Origin: Methanosarcina sp.
GTDB lineage: Archaea; Halobacteriota; Methanosarcinia; Methanosarcinales; Methanosarcinaceae
DNA length: 46,389 bases
Direction: 5' to 3'
NCBI RefSeq assembly: GCF_028693135.1
Contig: NZ_JAQUVZ010000026.1
Span: 1 to 46,389, forward strand
Part shown: piece after piece, positions 2,631 to 42,399 of the stretch
How the letters are laid out: the number at the start of each line of letters is the position of its first letter
Position numbering within the stretch: the stretch's first letter is position 1
Notes under the pieces: generated by a model
What the model was told of the DNA's origin: nothing
The model's input: the letters and a program-made list of their open reading frames with translations, nothing else
The model's database searches: none
Made by a program: the position numbers and the translations under genes

Positions 2631-4205
2631 ATGAATCGGAGTTTCAAGTTCATTTTGATCATTTGTATGCTGTTTGCCGTAATCGGAGCAAGTGCCTGTA
2701 TAGGTGAAGAAAAAGATGGGACTGCAAAAGGTGCAGGTTCCGGAGAAAATTCCCAGGAGCTTGTTGTGGGCATAAGTACGGATGTCAGCAACTGGTACCT
2801 TGACATGTTTGCAGCGGGTGATGCACGTTTTGTCTGGTCTCAGGTCTATGAAACCCTTGTGAGGCTTGATTCAGACCTGAACATTATCCCCGGGCTTGCG
2901 GAATCCTGGGAAACCCCTGATGAAGGAAAGACCTGGATATTCCACCTGCGCGAAAATGTGACTTTCCATGACGGGACTCCCTTTGATGCCGATTCGGTTG
3001 TTTACTCTTATTCCAATAAGTCCTATGTAAGGCAGGCAGTCTTAAAACCGGTTCAGAGCGTGGAAGCTCTCGACGCTCATACTGTAAAATTTGTCCTGGC
3101 AAAACCCATGCCTCTGCCGTTCTACCTGACTCACATAGCCTGGCCTGTAATGGGTCCGAGCTGTCTTGATGAAGCCGGGAATTTCATCAAACCGATAGGA
3201 ACCGGGCCGTTCAAGTTTGAAACTCAGGCAAAGGACCAGGAAATAGTGCTCACAAAAAATGAAGCCTACTGGGGTGAAAAGCCGCTGCTTGATAAGGTTA
3301 CTTTTAAGGTAATCCCGGAGGCGGCTACACGGGTGATTGCCCTTGAGACGGGGGAAGTGGACATGGTCGTCAAGGTCCCGGAATACGATGTCCAAAGGCT
3401 CGAAGCCGAAGAGGGTATCCAGGTCCACAGGAAACTTTCGACCTTTACGGATTTCCTGCAGTTCAACTGCGACAAATCTCCCTTTAATGAAAAGAGAGTA
3501 CGCCAGAGTGTTGCTTATGCAGTCGATACTGAAACTCTCGTAAATGAAGTGCTTGAAGGCGTCGGGGTGCCGGCAGGTGGAAGGCCTTATTCCCCTGTAA
3601 TGATGTACTCAGACCCTGATCTTAAGACATATACGCAGGACCTCGATAAGGCAAGGGCTCTCCTTGAGGAGGCCGGGTGGAAAGATTCTAACGGGGACGG
3701 GATTGCAGAAAAAGACGGAAAACCCCTGCATGTGACCCTGATAGTAAGTAAGGGAGTTTGGGCAGCCAGGCATAACCCTATAGCTCAGGTTGTGCAGGGT
3801 GTCCTTCGAGAAGTCGGAATGGATGTAGAAATCAAGGTTCTTGACGAAGGAGCCATAAGCAAACTCGAAAGCACAGGGGACTTTGATATGATACTCAGAA
3901 GCGGCTATTTCGTCTGGGGACCCTACCCGAAGCACTTCTTTGTGCACCACTCCGCAAGCCCTTATTCTCATTACCACAATGAGACCTATGACCAGCTCGT
4001 CAATGAAGCCGATATGACTGTTGATACACAGAAACAGGAAGAACTCTACCATTCCCTGCAGGCCTTTGTGATAGAAGAAGTTCCGGCTTTTTACCTTGTG
4101 CACGAGGAAAAAGTTGTTGCAACCGGCTCTTCGGTAAAAGGCTATACCATAAGCTCTGAAGACCCCTGGCTGAACCTTTCGAGGGTCTACCTGGAAAAGA
4201 AGTAA
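2631..4205 (+). CDS. ABC transporter substrate-binding lipoprotein, peptide/nickel type (SBP_bac_5)
   Basis: A 524-residue extracytoplasmic binding protein. The N-terminus has a lysine/arginine start, a hydrophobic stretch and a lipobox-like GASAC with Cys23, so it is probably a membrane-anchored lipoprotein. Family hallmarks are visible: YETLVRLD, PGLAESWE.. DEGKTWIFHLRENVTFHDGTPFDADSVVYSY, GTGPFKF, and VRQSVAYAVDTETLV in the middle. This family binds oligopeptides, opines, or nickel (free or chelated). First gene of a five-gene importer operon followed by a methyltransferase. The ligand cannot be read from sequence; nickel or a small chelator is attractive for a methanogen but is inference. 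Confidence 0.88.
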   Translation: MNRSFKFILIICMLFAVIGASACIGEEKDGTAKGAGSGENSQELVVGISTDVSNWYLDMFAAGDARFVWSQVYETLVRLDSDLNIIPGLAESWETPDEGKTWIFHLRENVTFHDGTPFDADSVVYSYSNKSYVRQAVLKPVQSVEALDAHTVKFVLAKPMPLPFYLTHIAWPVMGPSCLDEAGNFIKPIGTGPFKFETQAKDQEIVLTKNEAYWGEKPLLDKVTFKVIPEAATRVIALETGEVDMVVKVPEYDVQRLEAEEGIQVHRKLSTFTDFLQFNCDKSPFNEKRVRQSVAYAVDTETLVNEVLEGVGVPAGGRPYSPVMMYSDPDLKTYTQDLDKARALLEEAGWKDSNGDGIAEKDGKPLHVTLIVSKGVWAARHNPIAQVVQGVLREVGMDVEIKVLDEGAISKLESTGDFDMILRSGYFVWGPYPKHFFVHHSASPYSHYHNETYDQLVNEADMTVDTQKQEELYHSLQAFVIEEVPAFYLVHEEKVVATGSSVKGYTISSEDPWLNLSRVYLEKK

Positions 4206-6072: not shown

Positions 6073-7133
6073 ACCCCCCCATTCTCTCAATTGAAGACCT
6101 GAACGTCTCTTTCAAAACCTCAAAAGGCATTGTAAGAGCCAATGAGGGAATTTCCCTTGAAATAAGGGAAGGAGAAATTCTGGGGCTTATAGGAGAAACA
6201 GGCTGTGGAAAAACCACTCTTGGAAAAGCCATTTTGAGGCTGCTCTCCGGTAAAGCAAAACTTGAAGGAAAAATAGTGTACAGGGATACGGATCTCCTAA
6301 CCCTGCCCGAGAAGGAAATGAGATGCTTCAGGGGAAAGGAAATAGGAATTATGCTCCAGAACCCTTCAGCTTGCCTCAACCCTGTTCTTTCTGCAGGAAG
6401 GCAGATTGCAGAAATCTACCGTTACCACGAAGGCATGGGAAAAAAGGAAGCTGAAAAGAAAGCCGGAGAGATGCTTGAGCTTGTGGGGATAAGCTCTTTC
6501 CGGGGGTGCGAATATCCCCACCAGTTCAGCGGCGGGATGCTGCAGAGGGTCATGGTTGCAATAGGGCTTGCCCTCAGGCCCGGGCTTCTGATCGCAGATG
6601 AGCCTACAAAAGGGCTTGACACGGATACGAAATTGCAGATAGTGGAACTAATTGCCGGACTTGTCCGCAAGGAAAATTCTTCCATGCTTCTGATCACGCA
6701 TGACCTGGAACTTGCCGGCAGGCTCGCGGACAGAATTGCAGTTATGTACGCCGGAGAAATCATCGAAATCGGAAAGGCGGCTGAGATCATTTCTAACCCG
6801 AAACATCCTTACACCCTTGACCTGCTACATTCGCTTCCCGGAAAGGGGTTCAGGACCGTTCCAGGGCAACCCCCTAGCCTTGTTTCCCCTCCTTCCGGCT
6901 GCAGGTACCATCCGCGTTGCAGTTTCCGGCTTGAGGCCTGCTCACAGGTCCATCCGGAACTTCTGGGGTTTGAGAGTGAGCGCCTTACCCGCTGCTTTCT
7001 CTCTGAAATGGGCAGGATAAAGGAAACTGCAGCACAGCCTTCTCTTAATTCACAGCCTTCCCTTAATTCACAGCCTTCCCTTAATTCACAGTCTGCTCTC
7101 AAGTGTGCAGAGGAGGAGACGTGGCACTGTTGA
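6069..7133 (+). CDS. ABC transporter ATPase, NikD/OppD type
   Basis: A 354-residue ATPase energising the importer. Walker A is GETGCGKT (about 42-49), the signature is FSGGMLQRV (about 154), Walker B is LLIADEP (about 175), and the H-loop is ITHD. The C-terminal oligopeptide-transporter extension is present (YHPRCSFRLEACSQVHPEL). The start is GTG 6069 with AGGAGG about 10 bases upstream. The tail contains three copies of QPSLNS from an 18-bp DNA repeat, which looks dispensable. Its stop codon lies within the first of three 21-bp repeats that carry the start signals of the next gene. Confidence 0.9.
   Translation: MNPPILSIEDLNVSFKTSKGIVRANEGISLEIREGEILGLIGETGCGKTTLGKAILRLLSGKAKLEGKIVYRDTDLLTLPEKEMRCFRGKEIGIMLQNPSACLNPVLSAGRQIAEIYRYHEGMGKKEAEKKAGEMLELVGISSFRGCEYPHQFSGGMLQRVMVAIGLALRPGLLIADEPTKGLDTDTKLQIVELIAGLVRKENSSMLLITHDLELAGRLADRIAVMYAGEIIEIGKAAEIISNPKHPYTLDLLHSLPGKGFRTVPGQPPSLVSPPSGCRYHPRCSFRLEACSQVHPELLGFESERLTRCFLSEMGRIKETAAQPSLNSQPSLNSQPSLNSQSALKCAEEETWHC
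7035..7094. repeat. 18-bp repeat inside the ATPase gene tail
   Basis: Three exact or near-exact copies of CAGCCTTCYCTTAATTCA (7035-7088) and a partial fourth. They add three QPSLNS hexapeptides to the C-terminus of the ATPase. A second, unrelated tandem repeat (21 bp) begins 22 bases later. Confidence 0.9.
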
Positions 7134-7178
7134 AGGGAGACGTGGCACTGTTGAAGGGAGACATGGCACTGTTGAAGG
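7116..7178 (+). repeat. Triplicated 21-bp start cassette (SD + GTG/ATG)
   Basis: Three copies of a 21-bp unit beginning GGAGACGTGGCACTG. Each carries a GGAG Shine-Dalgarno and an in-frame start codon: GTG 7121, GTG 7142, ATG 7163. The TGA stop of the upstream ATPase gene (7131-7133) lies inside copy 1. Initiation at copies 1 or 2 would add one or two VALLKGD heptapeptides to the next protein. Confidence 0.85.
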
Positions 7179-7861
7179 TAGAGAACCTGAAAAAGTACTA
7201 TTATTCGGGGCTGTTCAAAAAAGAGGTCCACAGGGCTGTTGACGGAGTCAGTTTTGAGATAGGAAAAGGGGAAATTCTGGGACTTGTTGGAAAAAGCGGC
7301 TGCGGAAAATCCACACTTGGGAGAACAGTTTTGAGGCTGCTGGAACCCACTGCAGGTAGGGTCCTTTTTGATGGACAGGACATCTCAGGCTTCAAAGGCA
7401 GTGACCTGAAAAGACTGGGGACAAGAATGCAGATTATTTTCCAGAACCCGGAATCCTGCCTGAACCCGAGGATGAAGGTCTATGATGCCATTGCCGAACC
7501 CCTCAGGCTTCACAGGCTCTGCGAAAGAGATGAAGAACGGGGACGGATACAGGAACTTATCGAGGCTGTTTCCCTGAGTGAGGAACTGCTTTTCCGCTAT
7601 CCCGGAGAATTGAGCGGAGGGCAGCTCCAGAGGGTTTCAATAGCCAGAGTCCTGGGCATGAAACCGGAGTTCATAGTTGCGGATGAACCCACTTCAATGC
7701 TCGACCCACTTGTCCAGGGGCAGGTCCTTTTCCTTCTCAAAAAACTGCAAAATGATTATGGAATCAGTTTTCTATTCATCTCCCACGATATGCAGGTCGT
7801 GGAATGGATGAGTGATGAAATCGCTTTCATGGAGGAAGGAAAAATTGTCGGTTTCAGGTAG
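7163..7861 (+). CDS. ABC transporter ATPase, NikE/OppF type
   Basis: The second ATPase of the importer, 232 residues from ATG 7163. Walker A is GKSGCGKS (about 43-50), the signature is LSGGQLQRVSIARVL (about 151), Walker B is FIVADEP, and the H-loop is ISHD. It stops soon after the H-loop region (EEGKIVGFR) and lacks the C-terminal extension seen in its partner, so it is a short member of the family. Two in-frame upstream GTG starts (7121, 7142) have equally good ribosome sites; ATG 7163 is the parsimonious choice because conserved sequence begins there (LLKVENLKKYY). Confidence 0.85.
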   Translation: MALLKVENLKKYYYSGLFKKEVHRAVDGVSFEIGKGEILGLVGKSGCGKSTLGRTVLRLLEPTAGRVLFDGQDISGFKGSDLKRLGTRMQIIFQNPESCLNPRMKVYDAIAEPLRLHRLCERDEERGRIQELIEAVSLSEELLFRYPGELSGGQLQRVSIARVLGMKPEFIVADEPTSMLDPLVQGQVLFLLKKLQNDYGISFLFISHDMQVVEWMSDEIAFMEEGKIVGFR

Positions 7862-16480: not shown

Positions 16481-16650
16481 CAAAAAAGAGAAAAAAGCCA
16501 GAAAGTAAAAGAAAATAGGGAGCCGGTGAGATAAAAAAGAATAGTAAATACAACCGGAAAAACTGAATGGGTCAAAAAAAAGAATTAAATTATACCTGAA
16601 AAATAATCTTTTCCACGTATATTTTTTCTTCATTTTCCTGTTTTTTACAG

Positions 16651-16790
16651 CTTTTTATTGAATTTTATTGAATTTTATTGAATTTTATTGCTTTTTATTG
16701 AGTTTTATTGCTTTTTATTGCATTTTATTAGTTTTTATTACTTTTTATTGCATTTTATTGAATATTATTGATTTTTATTGCATTTTATAG
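16651..16790. repeat. 10-bp phased T-tract array (14 copies), probable curved DNA
   Basis: Fourteen consecutive decamers of the form nnTTTTATTG (CTTTTTATTG, AATTTTATTG, CATTTTATTG and others). The 10-bp period is close to one helical turn, so each T-tract faces the same side of the helix. Phased A/T-tracts of this kind bend DNA. The array lies about 870 bases upstream of the giant helicase gene in a gene-free region of 1.4 kb. Confidence 0.85.
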
Positions 16791-16867
16791 CGAGGTATTG
16801 CTTTTAAATTATTTTTAAGGCTTTTAAAAACATTTTCTTTCTGCATCTATCTTCTTTTTGGGAAGGA

Positions 16868-20600: not shown

Positions 20601-23597
20601 GCTGTCGGCGCACTTCTGCGCGGAAAGCAGGTAGTGGTAATGGGAGACTCAAAACAGCTTCCTCCAACCGACTTCTTCGATACTGTTGTCGCGTCTCCTG
20701 ATAGCGATCCTGATGACTATACCTCCGCAGGGGACATGGAAAGCATCCTGAACGTCTGCAAGCGCAGCTTCCCGGTAAAAACCCTGCGCTGGCACTACAG
20801 GAGCAGACACGAGTCCTTGATTGCGATTTCAAACCAGGAGTTTTACGACAACCGCCTTTATGTTTATCCCTCTCCCATGCAGAAAGATGAAAGCCTAGGG
20901 CTGAAGTTCGTTCACCTCCCTGATGCGGCTTATGACAGGGGCAAGAGTGGAGCCAACAGGATCGAGGCAAGAGCTGTTGCCAGGGCGGTGTTCGAGCATT
21001 TCCAGAAGTATCCCGGAAAAAGCCTGGGAGTCGGCACCTTCAATGTAAAACAGCAGGAGGCTATCCAGGAAGAGATCGAAGCCCTCCTGAAAGCAAACCC
21101 GGGTGTTGACCTTAACTCAGGGAATGATAGGGGTGAACACTTCTTCGTAAAGAACCTCGAAACCATCCAGGGTGACGAAAGAGATGTCATTCTGCTGAGT
21201 GTGGGTTTCGGTTTTGATAATAACAGGAAACTTTCCCTGAACTTCGGACCTCTTAACCGGGAAGGTGGGGAAAGGCGTCTGAATGTGCTTATCACGAGGG
21301 CAAGAGAAAAATGCGTTGTCTTTTCCAACTTTACTTCAAGAGACCTGCCCCTTGACGAAAATTCCTCTTTCGGGCTCAGAGCCCTCAAAGTCTTCCTTGA
21401 GTTTGCCGAAAGCGGCACGCTTCCGGCTCCTTCATGCGGCAGGCAGGAGCTTGATTCTCCTTTCGAAGAAGCGGTCTCTGATTTTCTGACTGAAAACGGT
21501 TGTGAGGTACACAGGCAGATCGGATGTGCCGGTTACAGGCTTGACCTTGCAGTCCCTGACCCCCGCCATCCGGGCAGGTACGTGCTCGGGATCGAATGCG
21601 ATGGGGCAAGCTATCATTCTTCTCCTGTTGCAAGAGACCGCGACCGCCTGCGCCAGCAGGTTCTCGAAGGTCTGGGCTGGAAAATCTACAGGGTCTGGTC
21701 TACGGACTGGTACCTCCATCCGAAAGATTGCAGGGAAAAACTGCTTGATACCGTAAAGGCAGCTGTTAAACAGGCAAAATTGCAAGCAAAATCCGAACCT
21801 GAACCCGAAGTTGTGATAATAAACGAACCTCCTGCCTGGGCAAAATCCGCCAGAATTTATGAGGTCGTCACAACAAATGAGGTCGTCACAACTAATGAGA
21901 TAGCCACAACTAATGAGATAGCCACAACTAATGAGATAAATGCCGGGCCTGCTGCAAGCCTGTTTTCACCTTTAGAAAGCAAAGCCGTTAACGAGCCTGA
22001 AAACAACTTTAACGAGCCTGAAATAAGACCCTTGGGAACGGCATCCCCGACAGAAGCTTCCTCTAAAGTAGAGTTCCTTTCGGAAAACTCATCTGAAATG
22101 CAGCCCCTGGTCGAAGATTCACCTGAAAAGAAGTCTATTGCACAGATTTCCATTGAAACGGCATCTGAAGGGGAAGTAGAAGAAGCAGACGAAGAGAAAC
22201 TGGAAGACGAGGTGGAGTATGAAGACGAAGCAGAAGATGAAGAATCCTTTACGGCTGCTTTCCCCGCGTTGGAAGGAGGATTTTTAACCAATTCAGGGCC
22301 GGACTTCCTTCCGGAAATGACTGTAAAAGCCGATTCCATGGCTGCTCTTGCGGGCGAAAACTCCAGAAAAAAACCTGTCAGAAGGTTAAAGAAATCAAAG
22401 CTTCTTAAATTCAGTGTTGATCCACGCTCTAATTTCGAAACAGATATGGAAAGAGAATCAGACCTTATTCCTGAGCCTGAACCTGAAAAAATGAACTTCT
22501 TCCAGGCTTACCCTGAGATCGATTTCAGTGCAGGTCCGGAAAAGAAACGAAAAAACAAAAGGATTAACGAGTTTGCTTACATCTACGGCTCGGGCAACTT
22601 CTTTGAACCTGAAGACCCTGAAGAAGATGATTATCCTGACCCTTATCCTGATCCTGAATGGAGTTCTGAACCCAAAATAGAGCGTGAAATCGAACTTGAA
22701 TTTGAGCCGAAACCAATTATTGAGCCTGAAGCCGATTTTGAAGCAGAAATAGAGTTTAAATCTGAAACAAAATCTGAAATAAAACCTGAAATAAAACCTG
22801 AAACAAAATCTGAAATAAAATCTGAAATAAAACCTGAAATTGAATCTGAAATTGAATCTGAAATTGAATCTGAAATTGAATCTGAAATTGAATCTGATCC
22901 TGTTTCAGGCGGCAATCCCGAAAAAAAACCCGAATTAGATCCCAGCTCAGGGCTCGAGATTGAAGATTTCGGAATTATTGAAACTTCTGCTCCTGAGACT
23001 ATGAAAGCTGAAAATAAAAAACTGTCCAGGAAAGGGAATTCCCTTGAAGCTCTGGTGCCTTCCTACAGAATCTGTGCCTCCTCAGGACTTCCGCAGTCAT
23101 TAGACCTTTCTGAAGTTTCGGATGAGCAGATCGAGGAGGCAGTTGTAAGAATTGTGGAATGCGAAGGGCCCGTTCACTCAGAGGAAATACTCCAGAGGAT
23201 AAAATCCCATACAGAACTCTCCCGCATGCTCGGTAAAATCAAGCAGAGAATACTTGATTCCATGGCATCGGCTGAAAATTCGGGAAAAATCCTGGCAAGA
23301 GGAGAATTTTACTGGTCGCTCTTGGAACCTGAATATCTCCTGCGCAGGCGTGATGTTGATGCATATGCAAAGATTGAATGGATCTGCGATGAGGAAATAA
23401 AAGAGGCTGTCCGTTTTGTTCTTAACAACCAGTACTCAACCCCTATGGAAGATCTGATTATCCAGACATCAAGGGTACTGGGGATTAAAACAACCCGCAA
23501 AAACACCTGGGATAGAATAGAGAAAATTATTCAGTCAGGAATAGAAAGCAACGAACTGACCCGAACTCCCAATGAAATGATTTATTTTGTAGAGTAA
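17664..23597 (+). CDS. Giant DUF4011 / SF1 helicase / MTES_1575-type nuclease / DUF3320 protein
   Basis: A 1977-residue multidomain protein, probably antiviral. Order: DUF4011-like N-terminus (LRQNLLDLSLRNNLLNYRP); SF1 helicase with Walker A GPPGTGKS (335-342), Walker B FDEASQ (D970-E971), GDSKQLPP, TIQGDERDVILLS (about 1166) and LITRAREK (about 1208). A PDDEXK/Vsr-like nuclease follows, with YRLDLAVPDP (about 1290), IECDGASYH (about 1309) and W-x-STDW. An acidic linker (about 1372-1790) holds TTNE and EIESEI repeats, then a DUF3320-like C-terminus. I recall one-gene defence systems with a DUF4011-helicase-Vsr layout (named Hhe), but I have not verified this. ATG 17664 is preferred over TTG 17634 because AAAAGGG precedes it and conserved sequence begins there. 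Confidence 0.88.
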   Translation: MVDIVKELETLRQNLLDLSLRNNLLNYRPSPRRTISITGRTPEEVYDLFVLQEKSMKFRAAKTRPRKGKKSENGEEGEDDGAENESKLLKTIGKILVSEERNKPQNSRFEPFLETPDDSETLDRKLFYVYNQANSIFEEQGYPVLYLAMGFLQWSEIKSSVKNPRAPLVLVPVELKRMGKGRNFSIQWTGDEIFTSITLQAKMKEFGIEVPEFEMPEEAFGIEEYFRTVLGAIRDKPEWKIIPEVCLDLFNFRKFVMYKDLDPATWPEDMSPAEHPLIQKVFNPEEPEGEIQGFREEEVDLKLSAKDTYHIMDADSSQIAVVEDVKAGKDLVVEGPPGTGKSQTIANTIAELLAQGKNVLFVSEKMAALQVVKSRLDNAGLGELCLEVHSHQTRKKAVLEELEKTLNRAVPPAISAERDLNELEKLKKELNGYAETLKEPAGKIYPSLYALYGVKEKTRIYFESSGLKMPNFKFKDPDTWEPGAWMEAESVLEKMGQVLPALGPVRKNPWYGCEPGLVLPSDLGEIGAIADECAFDFENLEKTIKTLNDLSATSKPQTLKDITGITEAAKLIGKSKPLSEKLLQNPEWDSAASISEAEALVSKIRQYLELKTFVDRTFHTSVFALDPSEFKDISGKLFSILNPRYRKLKKDISACYISGAPSKDSQILLDLACVSECQAHRVELEGAEIRGKKFFWEYWKGFESDPVFLEEYCKWMVPFRRHIKEGTLTDRSFRLVGSGVDAAALESAINEVLAAKQAFISSLEKLGSLIGADFGKMFNDMEAVKISQLKSRVTRWKDETSSLVFWSQYLGYRQACLETLASPMMEDIEAGKMEPEALIPAFEGNYAESMLHRAFRERPELSAFIRELHEGKISKFTELDKKVLLENRVRIICSAYEQAPKLTSGASRASEAGILLNEFNRKRGHMPIRTLMKKAGSLVQKIKPCFLMSPLSIAQYLDPRNTRFDVIIFDEASQVRPEDAVGALLRGKQVVVMGDSKQLPPTDFFDTVVASPDSDPDDYTSAGDMESILNVCKRSFPVKTLRWHYRSRHESLIAISNQEFYDNRLYVYPSPMQKDESLGLKFVHLPDAAYDRGKSGANRIEARAVARAVFEHFQKYPGKSLGVGTFNVKQQEAIQEEIEALLKANPGVDLNSGNDRGEHFFVKNLETIQGDERDVILLSVGFGFDNNRKLSLNFGPLNREGGERRLNVLITRAREKCVVFSNFTSRDLPLDENSSFGLRALKVFLEFAESGTLPAPSCGRQELDSPFEEAVSDFLTENGCEVHRQIGCAGYRLDLAVPDPRHPGRYVLGIECDGASYHSSPVARDRDRLRQQVLEGLGWKIYRVWSTDWYLHPKDCREKLLDTVKAAVKQAKLQAKSEPEPEVVIINEPPAWAKSARIYEVVTTNEVVTTNEIATTNEIATTNEINAGPAASLFSPLESKAVNEPENNFNEPEIRPLGTASPTEASSKVEFLSENSSEMQPLVEDSPEKKSIAQISIETASEGEVEEADEEKLEDEVEYEDEAEDEESFTAAFPALEGGFLTNSGPDFLPEMTVKADSMAALAGENSRKKPVRRLKKSKLLKFSVDPRSNFETDMERESDLIPEPEPEKMNFFQAYPEIDFSAGPEKKRKNKRINEFAYIYGSGNFFEPEDPEEDDYPDPYPDPEWSSEPKIEREIELEFEPKPIIEPEADFEAEIEFKSETKSEIKPEIKPETKSEIKSEIKPEIESEIESEIESEIESEIESDPVSGGNPEKKPELDPSSGLEIEDFGIIETSAPETMKAENKKLSRKGNSLEALVPSYRICASSGLPQSLDLSEVSDEQIEEAVVRIVECEGPVHSEEILQRIKSHTELSRMLGKIKQRILDSMASAENSGKILARGEFYWSLLEPEYLLRRRDVDAYAKIEWICDEEIKEAVRFVLNNQYSTPMEDLIIQTSRVLGIKTTRKNTWDRIEKIIQSGIESNELTRTPNEMIYFVE
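21860..22895. repeat. Coding minisatellites in the helicase linker
   Basis: At about 21860-21940 an 18-bp unit encodes VVTTNE/IATTNE four times. At about 22760-22895 a 12-bp unit (GAAATTGAATCT and GAAATAAAATCT/CCT variants) encodes SEIKPEIK and SEIESEIE repeats. Both lie in the acidic linker between nuclease and DUF3320 domains, so copy number probably changes linker length without breaking the frame. Confidence 0.85.
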
Positions 23598-33496: not shown

Positions 33497-33694
33497 ATGG
33501 TAGGTATGTCATTTTCAGATATTTTCAACCAGTTAAAAGAACTTGAAAAAAGATTCAATGAGATAAGATATCCGCCTGAAGCTACTTTTCAACCTTCCTT
33601 TTCCTTTAAAGTCCGAAAAGCAGAACAGGACTGTTTACAGAACCATTTGCCTGATTTTGAGATCGATGAATTTTTTGACAAGGTAGAACAATGA
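33497..33694 (+). CDS. Probable antitoxin of a RelBE-type pair
   Basis: A 65-residue (or 62 from ATG 33506) acidic, charged protein (FNQLKELEKRFNEIRYPPE...DFEIDEFFDKVEQ). No named domain is recognised; the role is inferred from its place directly before a RelE-like toxin. Its TGA stop (33692-33694) overlaps an ATG in the form ATGA, the first unit of a four-copy repeat leading to the toxin start. Confidence 0.65.
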   Translation: MVGMSFSDIFNQLKELEKRFNEIRYPPEATFQPSFSFKVRKAEQDCLQNHLPDFEIDEFFDKVEQ

Positions 33695-33741
33695 CAGGGT
33701 AGAACAATGACAAGGTAGAACAATGACAAGGTAGAACAATG
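33678..33741 (+). repeat. Four 16-bp stop-start cassettes between antitoxin and toxin
   Basis: The unit AGGTAGAACAATGACA is repeated at exactly 16-base spacing, with ATGs at 33691, 33707, 33723 and 33739. Each unit has an AGG(G)T ribosome site, an ATG and a TAG. The first three ATGs open three-codon ORFs (MTG, MTR, MTR) that end at the TAG just before the next ATG. The fourth ATG is the toxin start. The antitoxin stop lies in the first unit. Confidence 0.9.
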
Positions 33742-34020
33742 ACATATAGAGTGGCATTTCACCCTTCCGTCCGCAAAAACCTGACAAAACTGTACCGACT
33801 CGACAGGCCGGCATATGATTATGTAAAGAAGCGCCTCCGTCTCCTGGCTTACAGGCCTGAAATGGGGAATCCTCTTAAGGCTGAGTTCGAGGGAAAATGG
33901 AGGATTCATATAGGAGCCTTTGTGCTGATTTACACATTTGATAAGACCAGCAATACCCTTACCCTTCTGACTTTTGAGCACTATACACGGGCTTATGACA
34001 CGGATAGTGCTTATACTTGA
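33739..34020 (+). CDS. RelE/ParE-family toxin
   Basis: 93 residues of the RelE/ParE fold: MTYRVAFHPSVRKNLTKL, then ...RLLAYRPEMGNPLKAEFEGKWRIHIGAFVLIYTFDKTSNTLTLLTFEHY. The pattern K-x(n)-G-x-WRIH-x-G-x-Y/F-R/V-x-IY is characteristic. RelE members cleave ribosome-bound mRNA; ParE members inhibit gyrase; I cannot separate these by eye, but the final Tyr (HYTRAY) fits RelE. It follows its antitoxin through a reiterated start cassette, which should tie toxin dosage to antitoxin translation. Confidence 0.85.
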   Translation: MTYRVAFHPSVRKNLTKLYRLDRPAYDYVKKRLRLLAYRPEMGNPLKAEFEGKWRIHIGAFVLIYTFDKTSNTLTLLTFEHYTRAYDTDSAYT

Positions 34021-42192: not shown

Positions 42193-42251
42193 TATCCCAT
42201 ACAGGGTACCCCTGTTGAAATATATTATTTAAACATATCCGGGATATATTG

Positions 42252-42399
42252 GTTGAAGTAGCATTTGTTGAAGTAGCATTTGTTGAAGTAGCATTTGTTG
42301 AAGTAGCATTTGTTGAAGTAGCATTTGTTGAAGTAGCATTTGTTGAAGTAGCATTTGTTGAAGTAGCATTTGTTGAAGCGGCATTGATTGAAGTAGCTT
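42252..42399. repeat. 15-bp minisatellite between convergent genes
   Basis: Nine copies of GTTGAAGTAGCATTT (42252-42386, last copy with changes) and a partial tenth that runs into the stop codon region of the NIF3 gene (stop complement at 42398). Frames stay open on both strands (VEVAF repeated on plus, LQQML on minus), but no start signal precedes them. Confidence 0.92.

What the first reader, a model, noticed from the sequence alone, without database searches (positions are those of the whole stretch)
33678..33741. Relay of three mini-ORFs between antitoxin and toxin
Four exact-period 16-bp units each contain a ribosome site, an ATG and a TAG. Because 16 is not a multiple of three, the three extra ATGs open only three-codon ORFs (MTG, MTR, MTR), each ending a few bases before the next ATG. 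A ribosome finishing the antitoxin (stop overlapping the first ATG) could step through successive terminations and reinitiations to the toxin ATG at 33739. Copy number would then tune the toxin to antitoxin ratio. I know of no described toxin-antitoxin pair with such a ladder.
Basis: partly seen in the sequence, partly recalled or inferred. Interest (0 to 1): 0.78.

Follow-up and report, generated by a model that had tools for sequence, protein, structure and literature searches.

The report
Minisatellite inside a toxin–antitoxin gene junction
In a few Methanosarcina archaea a 16-base piece holding the toxin gene's ribosome site and start codon has been copied two to four times at the antitoxin–toxin gene junction. 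This looks like ordinary DNA slippage in a repeat-prone genus, but it gives a natural series for testing how far a ribosome can hop between linked genes.

Summary
Four 16-bp units (array 33676-33744) lie between a 65-aa antitoxin-position gene and a RelE/ParE-fold toxin. Three units carry an extra ATG opening a 3-codon ORF (MTG, MTR, MTR), each ending 4 nt before the next ATG. The array is not chance (TRF score 131; best in 100 shuffles 61).

Comparison explains it. In 21 other Methanosarcina orthologs there is one unit, and in 20 the antitoxin TGA overlaps the toxin ATG (ATGA). Only one supported clade is expanded: 2 units (G025), 3 (G027), 4 (window). The "ladder" is therefore a recent tandem duplication of an ATGA-coupled junction. 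RBS, ATG and TAG were copied with it: TAG is an out-of-frame piece of the antitoxin's Val-Glu codons. The genus is known for such satellites.

The toxin ribosome site is conserved at synonymous antitoxin positions. In the 2-unit genome the upstream copy has lost it (and ATG became GTG) while the toxin-proximal copy is intact. That suggests the upstream starts are not needed, and argues against a selected relay.

The organism has PylS and tRNA-Pyl(CUA), so TAG may be read through. Relay is physically possible but untested; copy-number tuning is unproven.

The parts
33497..33694 (+). Antitoxin-position ORF (65 aa; the start may be ATG 33506 by ortholog alignment); no known family; ends VEQ-TGA
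   Evidence: found upstream of the toxin in all 24 orthologs (damaged in L021); dN/dS 0.12-0.23 among the three expanded genomes
33676..33744 (+). 16-bp tandem array, 4.3 copies (TGACAAGGTAGAACAA)
   Evidence: shuffle control
33677..33692 (+). Unit 1, which is also the coding end of the antitoxin (D K V E Q, then T of TGA)
33693..33708 (+). Unit 2 (A>G at 33697, SD GGGT)
33709..33724 (+). Unit 3
33725..33740 (+). Unit 4, toxin-proximal: AGGT at 33729-33732 and first two bases of the toxin ATG (33739)
33691..33694 (+). ATGA: antitoxin TGA overlapping the first extra ATG, the configuration of the ancestral antitoxin/toxin junction
33691..33702 (+). Mini-ORF 1 MTG-TAG (MTGONNDKVEQ-TGA 33691-33726 if TAG is read as pyrrolysine)
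33707..33718 (+). Mini-ORF 2 MTR-TAG (MTRONNDKVEQ-TGA 33707-33742, stop overlapping the toxin ATG, if TAG is read as pyrrolysine)
33723..33734 (+). Mini-ORF 3 MTR-TAG
33739..34020 (+). Toxin, 93 aa, RelE/ParE superfamily
   Evidence: Pfam ParE_toxin PF05016 35.9 bits vs cut-off 23; fold matches RelE structures 2khe, 3g5o, 1wmi (model pLDDT 64)

Best explanation
The array is a young minisatellite that grew by slippage or unequal exchange of a 16-bp stretch spanning an ancestral four-base overlap (ATGA) between a RelBE-like antitoxin gene and its toxin gene. The duplicated stretch happens to hold the toxin's Shine-Dalgarno site and start, so every extra copy carries an RBS, an ATG and an out-of-frame TAG without selection for them. 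The toxin is now most likely translated from the toxin-proximal copy, by ribosomes coming from the antitoxin in short hops and/or by fresh initiation. Extra units most likely loosen antitoxin-to-toxin coupling somewhat, with the mini-ORFs partly bridging the gap. Shown: array, ancestral state, clade-limited 2/3/4 copy number, conserved toxin RBS, decay of the upstream copy in the 2-unit genome. Inferred: slippage as the process, how ribosomes use the starts, and the direction of the effect on toxin level.
For: One unit in 21 of 24 orthologs, 20 of them ATGA. The three expanded genomes form one clade (99/97), and the neighbouring hydantoinase and YgjP-like genes are at the locus in all three. 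Units differ in register between lineages (GACAAGG vs GAAAAGG), as expected for array turnover. Genus background: 303 arrays in 726 kb of this genome; 1,531 arrays in 2.73 Mb of four genomes, about 70 overlapping a gene start. ATGA x4 at 16-bp spacing in 19 of 31 genus genomes, reversed-pattern control as common or commoner overall. PMC6749651 names Methanosarcina as satellite-rich. Toxin SD under constraint: antitoxin Lys(-4) AAG 23/23 against 33/124 elsewhere, Val(-3) GTA 21/23 against 4/21 elsewhere; sole Lys exception is the upstream unit of G025. Both genes under purifying selection.
Against: In the 3- and 4-unit genomes all internal ATGs are intact, which a maintained relay would also give (but these arrays are young: toxin dS 0.12-0.28). 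G025's GTG is still a usable start. No transcript, ribosome-profiling or protein data were examined, so the effect on toxin level is not measured.
Confidence: 0.66

Rival explanations
1. Selected relay: ribosomes leaving the antitoxin terminate and reinitiate through the mini-ORFs to the toxin, and unit number is used to set the toxin:antitoxin ratio.
For: Each hop is -4 or +4 nt, inside the range where coupling works, while 28 and 44 nt gaps would uncouple in H. volcanii (PMC10666635). Internal ATGs intact in the 3- and 4-unit genomes. Copy number varies 1-4.
Against: Upstream start site decayed in the 2-unit genome while the proximal one stays. All features are by-products of duplication. 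ATGA arrays not enriched over control.
Confidence: 0.12
2. Neutral spacer: the toxin is translated by independent initiation at its own proximal AGGT site, and the mini-ORFs have no measurable effect.
For: A toxin-proximal SD-like site is present in all 24 genomes; the start region is not more structured in expanded genomes (unpaired 0.48-0.61 against 0.35-0.51 in six one-unit ones).
Against: Upstream copies in the window carry nearly equal RBS and ATG at the same spacing, so ribosomes should use them to some extent; the ancestral pair was almost certainly coupled.
Confidence: 0.3
3. Minigene effect other than relay: ribosomes on the mini-ORFs act as decoys, drop off as short peptidyl-tRNA, or protect the mRNA, as proposed for the axe-txe minigene.
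For: A two-codon minigene raises Txe translation in axe-txe, with distance and frame effects (PMC8708949); mini-ORFs here are 3 codons with an SD each.
Against: No data in archaea; the axe-txe element is two codons inside the antitoxin gene, not a junction repeat.
Confidence: 0.1
4. Assembly artefact: wrong unit number in a draft contig.
For: The window is a contig of an 89-contig draft; short repeats can be miscounted.
Against: The array (about 70 bp) is far shorter than ordinary reads; two genomes each held as one contig independently show 3 and 2 units at the same place.
Confidence: 0.03

Closest known systems
Methanosarcina satellites / minisatellites (Satellites in the prokaryote world, 2019, PMC6749651)
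   Same: At least 4 tandem units, unit 10-30 bp, genus named as exceptionally rich in them
   Different: This one sits exactly across a gene junction and duplicates a ribosome site plus start codon; I found only one other non-triplet case in 2.73 Mb of four genomes
ATGA-overlap gene pairs coupled by termination-reinitiation (PMC6728339, PMC10666635)
   Same: Ancestral junction is ATGA with the SD inside the upstream gene; adjacent genes encode partners of a presumed complex
   Different: In three species the real stop-start distance is now +12, +28 or +44 nt with intermediate start/stop pairs
axe-txe minigene (Kedzierska and Potrykus 2021, PMC8708949)
   Same: Very short ORF ahead of a type II toxin gene of the RelE/YoeB kind
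   Different: One two-codon minigene inside the antitoxin gene of a bacterial plasmid; no tandem repeat, no ladder
RelBE / ParDE type II toxin-antitoxin superfamily
   Same: Antitoxin position first, toxin with ParE_toxin domain and RelE-like fold
   Different: Antitoxin matches no Pfam or NCBIfam family; toxin below NCBIfam YafQ and RelE/StbE cut-offs

Membership tests
RelE/ParE toxin superfamily (PF05016) | Score above the Pfam gathering cut-off | tested here: met
   35.9 bits vs 23
RelE/ParE toxin superfamily (PF05016) | RelE-like fold | tested here: met
   Foldseek best hits 2khe RelE, 3g5o RelBE2, 1wmi archaeal RelE-RelB, TM 0.66-0.71; model only moderately confident, pLDDT 64
RelE/ParE toxin superfamily (PF05016) | Toxic activity neutralised by the upstream gene product | not testable with these tools
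   No experiment possible
YafQ / RelE-StbE subfamilies (TIGR00053, TIGR02385) | Score above the curated cut-off | tested here: not met
   25.3 vs 87.25 and 22.1 vs 27.9 bits
Type II TA operon | Small upstream partner gene co-conserved with the toxin | tested here: met
   Upstream ORF found in all 24 orthologs, damaged in one (L021)
Type II TA operon | Antitoxin belongs to a known antitoxin family | tested here: not met
   No Pfam or NCBIfam match of note
Termination-reinitiation gene pair | Stop/start overlap of -4 or -1 nt | tested here: met
   Met in the 21 one-unit orthologs (20 ATGA, 1 TAATG); in the window the antitoxin stop overlaps only the first extra ATG, and the toxin is at +44 nt
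Termination-reinitiation gene pair | Downstream translation depends on upstream translation | not testable with these tools
   Needs reporter fusions
Methanosarcina satellite | At least four tandem repeats of 10-200 nt (definition in PMC6749651) | tested here: met
   16 nt, 4.3 copies, 96%
axe-txe-type toxin minigene | Two-codon ORF inside the antitoxin gene that modulates toxin translation | tested here: not met
   Three-codon ORFs lying after the antitoxin stop; effect on translation untested

The most novel reading that the evidence does not exclude
A natural copy-number-variable reinitiation ladder sets the toxin:antitoxin ratio, and its hops change with pyrrolysine decoding. When TAG is read as Pyl, mini-ORF 1 runs to a TGA overlapping the third extra ATG and mini-ORF 2 runs to a TGA overlapping the toxin ATG itself, turning +4-nt hops into -4-nt overlaps under conditions where tRNA-Pyl is charged.
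Probability: 0.05. Interest if true: 0.78.

Novelty: new variant of a known kind. Interest (0 to 1): 0.42.

Why it matters
Whether a post-termination ribosome scans or needs a touching start codon is disputed. Four natural junction forms (1, 2, 3 and 4 units; stop-start spacing -4, +12, +28, +44 nt) of the same gene pair, three of them in one clade, give a ready-made series for testing it in an archaeon. It also shows how a satellite can build mini-ORFs at a gene junction with no selection for them, a caution against reading such ladders as designed devices.

Tried and rejected
Archaeal SSU rRNA was not found in the draft, so the anti-SD AUCACCUCCU was taken from general knowledge. PADLOC gave no match. 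The one genome-contig scan returned eight more distant relatives and none of the three close ones. The 130-aa and 59-aa minus-strand ORFs through the array were not pursued: no evidence for them. Promoter and terminator scans at the array were near the shuffle level and model bacterial sigma-70 only. Paper searches for tandem repeats plus reinitiation or translational coupling found no precedent for a ladder. Within-species variation could not be examined: one genome per species is held.

Full report
OBSERVATION. The window is contig C38 of a 4.22-Mb draft genome. Its closest named matches are Methanosarcina, and it encodes PylS and tRNA-Pyl. At 33676-33744 there is a 16-bp tandem array, 4.3 copies, 96% match, TRF score 131. 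The best TRF score in 100 dinucleotide shuffles of the window was 61, so the array is not chance. Units are 33677-33692, 33693-33708 (one A>G), 33709-33724 and 33725-33740. The antitoxin-position ORF ends GTA GAA CAA TGA, and its TGA overlaps ATG 33691. ATGs at 33691, 33707 and 33723 open MTG*, MTR* and MTR*, each TAG ending 4 nt before the next ATG; the toxin ATG is 33739.

THE GENES. The downstream 93-aa protein passes Pfam ParE_toxin (35.9 bits, cut-off 23) but not NCBIfam YafQ or RelE/StbE. A profile of eight orthologs finds 2khe (RelE) at E 6e-4 and 1wmi and 3g5o weakly. An AlphaFold model of moderate confidence (pLDDT 64) matches RelE, RelBE and YoeB structures. The upstream ORF matches no family, but lies upstream of the toxin in all 24 orthologs (damaged in L021). 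Among the three expanded genomes dN/dS is 0.20-0.33 for the toxin and 0.12-0.23 for the antitoxin, so both genes are maintained.

ANCESTRAL STATE AND COPY NUMBER. The toxin ortholog was found in 24 genus genomes, window included. In 21 there is one unit: 20 have the antitoxin TGA overlapping the toxin ATG (ATGA) and one has TAATG. Three genomes have more: the window 4 (stop-to-ATG 44 nt), G027 3 (28 nt), G025 2 (12 nt). An exact-pattern search of all 31 genus genomes for adjacent GGTAGAACAATGA units found only the window and G027; G025 was missed because its upstream unit has decayed. On a toxin tree the three expanded genomes form one clade (99/97), and the neighbouring hydantoinase and YgjP-like genes are found at the locus in all three.

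HOW IT AROSE. The one-unit sequence TGAAAAGGTAGAACAATGACA has TGAAA/TGACA 16 bp apart, which could seed slippage or unequal exchange (inference). G027 units read GAAAAGG, window units GACAAGG, meaning either separate duplications or homogenisation. Each copied unit brings AGGT, ATG and TAG for free. The TAG is part of the antitoxin's GTA GAA codons read out of frame, not a stop that evolved as such.

IS SUCH AN ARRAY UNUSUAL HERE? This genome has 303 arrays of score 50 or more in 726 kb. In 2.73 Mb from four genomes there were 1,531 arrays, about 70 of them overlapping a gene start. PMC6749651 names Methanosarcina as exceptionally satellite-rich. A 16-bp-spaced ATGA x4 pattern occurs in 19 of 31 genus genomes, and its reversed control is overall as common or commoner; ten such arrays inspected open no gene of 60 codons or more. 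Duplicated RBS plus start with a period not divisible by three was found at this locus (window, G027) and once more, in G025, where a 20-bp duplication before a gp25-like gene makes a 7-codon ORF whose TGA overlaps the next ATG; its orthologs lack the duplication. Arrays are ordinary; their place at a start site is uncommon.

IS THE LADDER USED OR SELECTED? Across orthologs the last Lys codon of the antitoxin is AAG in 23/23 (33/124 elsewhere in the gene), and the next Val codon is GTA in 21/23 (4/21 elsewhere). The rows are related, so no p-value is given, but this points to constraint on the toxin SD (AAGGTA) within the antitoxin. The only genome lacking that Lys codon is G025: its upstream unit is AATAGAGTAGAACAGTGA (SD weakened, -3.0 against -4.7 kcal/mol; ATG now GTG), while the toxin-proximal unit is intact. 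Once a second copy existed, selection apparently kept only the toxin-proximal site. This argues against need for the upstream starts, though GTG is still a usable start and 12 nt is within the partial-coupling range.

MECHANISM. In H. volcanii coupling fell to 40-60% at +13/14 nt and about zero at +22/23 nt, and the last 15 nt of an upstream gene sufficed for coupling in E. coli (PMC10666635); other systems are more tolerant (PMC12548453). So 28 or 44 nt would uncouple toxin from antitoxin unless bridged by mini-ORFs or replaced by fresh initiation at the proximal AGGT site. The array region is not more structured than in one-unit relatives. I think a mixture most likely: reduced coupling, partly rescued by short hops, plus independent initiation. 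This part is inference.

PYRROLYSINE. TAG can be decoded as Pyl where tRNA-Pyl competes with release factor (review PMC8211752). With TAG read, mini-ORF 1 becomes MTGONNDKVEQ ending at TGA 33724-33726, which overlaps ATG 33723. Mini-ORF 2 becomes MTRONNDKVEQ ending at TGA 33740-33742, which overlaps the toxin ATG 33739. Either reading feeds a later start.

COMPARISON WITH THE KNOWN. A minigene affecting toxin translation is described for axe-txe: two codons, inside the antitoxin gene, bacterial plasmid (PMC8708949). Nothing found describes a tandem ladder. I rate this a new variant of a known kind: a satellite across a coupled TA junction.

VERDICT. Real, well explained as a clade-specific minisatellite in an ATGA junction; relay possible, a copy-number-tuning device unproven and somewhat disfavoured. 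Interest is moderate because the 1/2/3/4-unit series is a clean natural test of reinitiation distance in archaea.

Noticed in passing
window 7115-7182: A 21-bp in-frame array (3.2 copies, GTG/GTG/ATG starts) spans the junction of two same-strand ORFs (stop at 7133; next ORF to 7861), a second repeat across a gene junction in this window.
   Followed up: partly
L145:15093-15136 (G025): 20-bp duplication of RBS plus ATG before a gp25-like (phage-tail-type) ORF creates a 7-codon ORF whose TGA overlaps the true ATG; orthologs lack it.
   Followed up: partly
L125 minus strand, + strand coordinates about 3433-3541 (G027): 17-bp array, 6.4 copies, with GTG in most units; where the next unit starts GTGA the six-codon ORF ends overlapping that GTG.
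   Followed up: no
window 33506 vs 33497: The antitoxin start is more likely ATG 33506 (M-S-F-S-D-I), where many orthologs have M-T/K-F-x-E-I.
   Followed up: partly
L021 (G020): The antitoxin reading frame appears broken by a frameshift while the toxin frame is open; could be a sequencing error or a decayed antitoxin.
   Followed up: no
window, whole: 51 TRF rows (score 30 or more) in 46 kb, including long arrays at 2015-2216, 16623-16805, 22758-22897 and 42248-42397.
   Followed up: no
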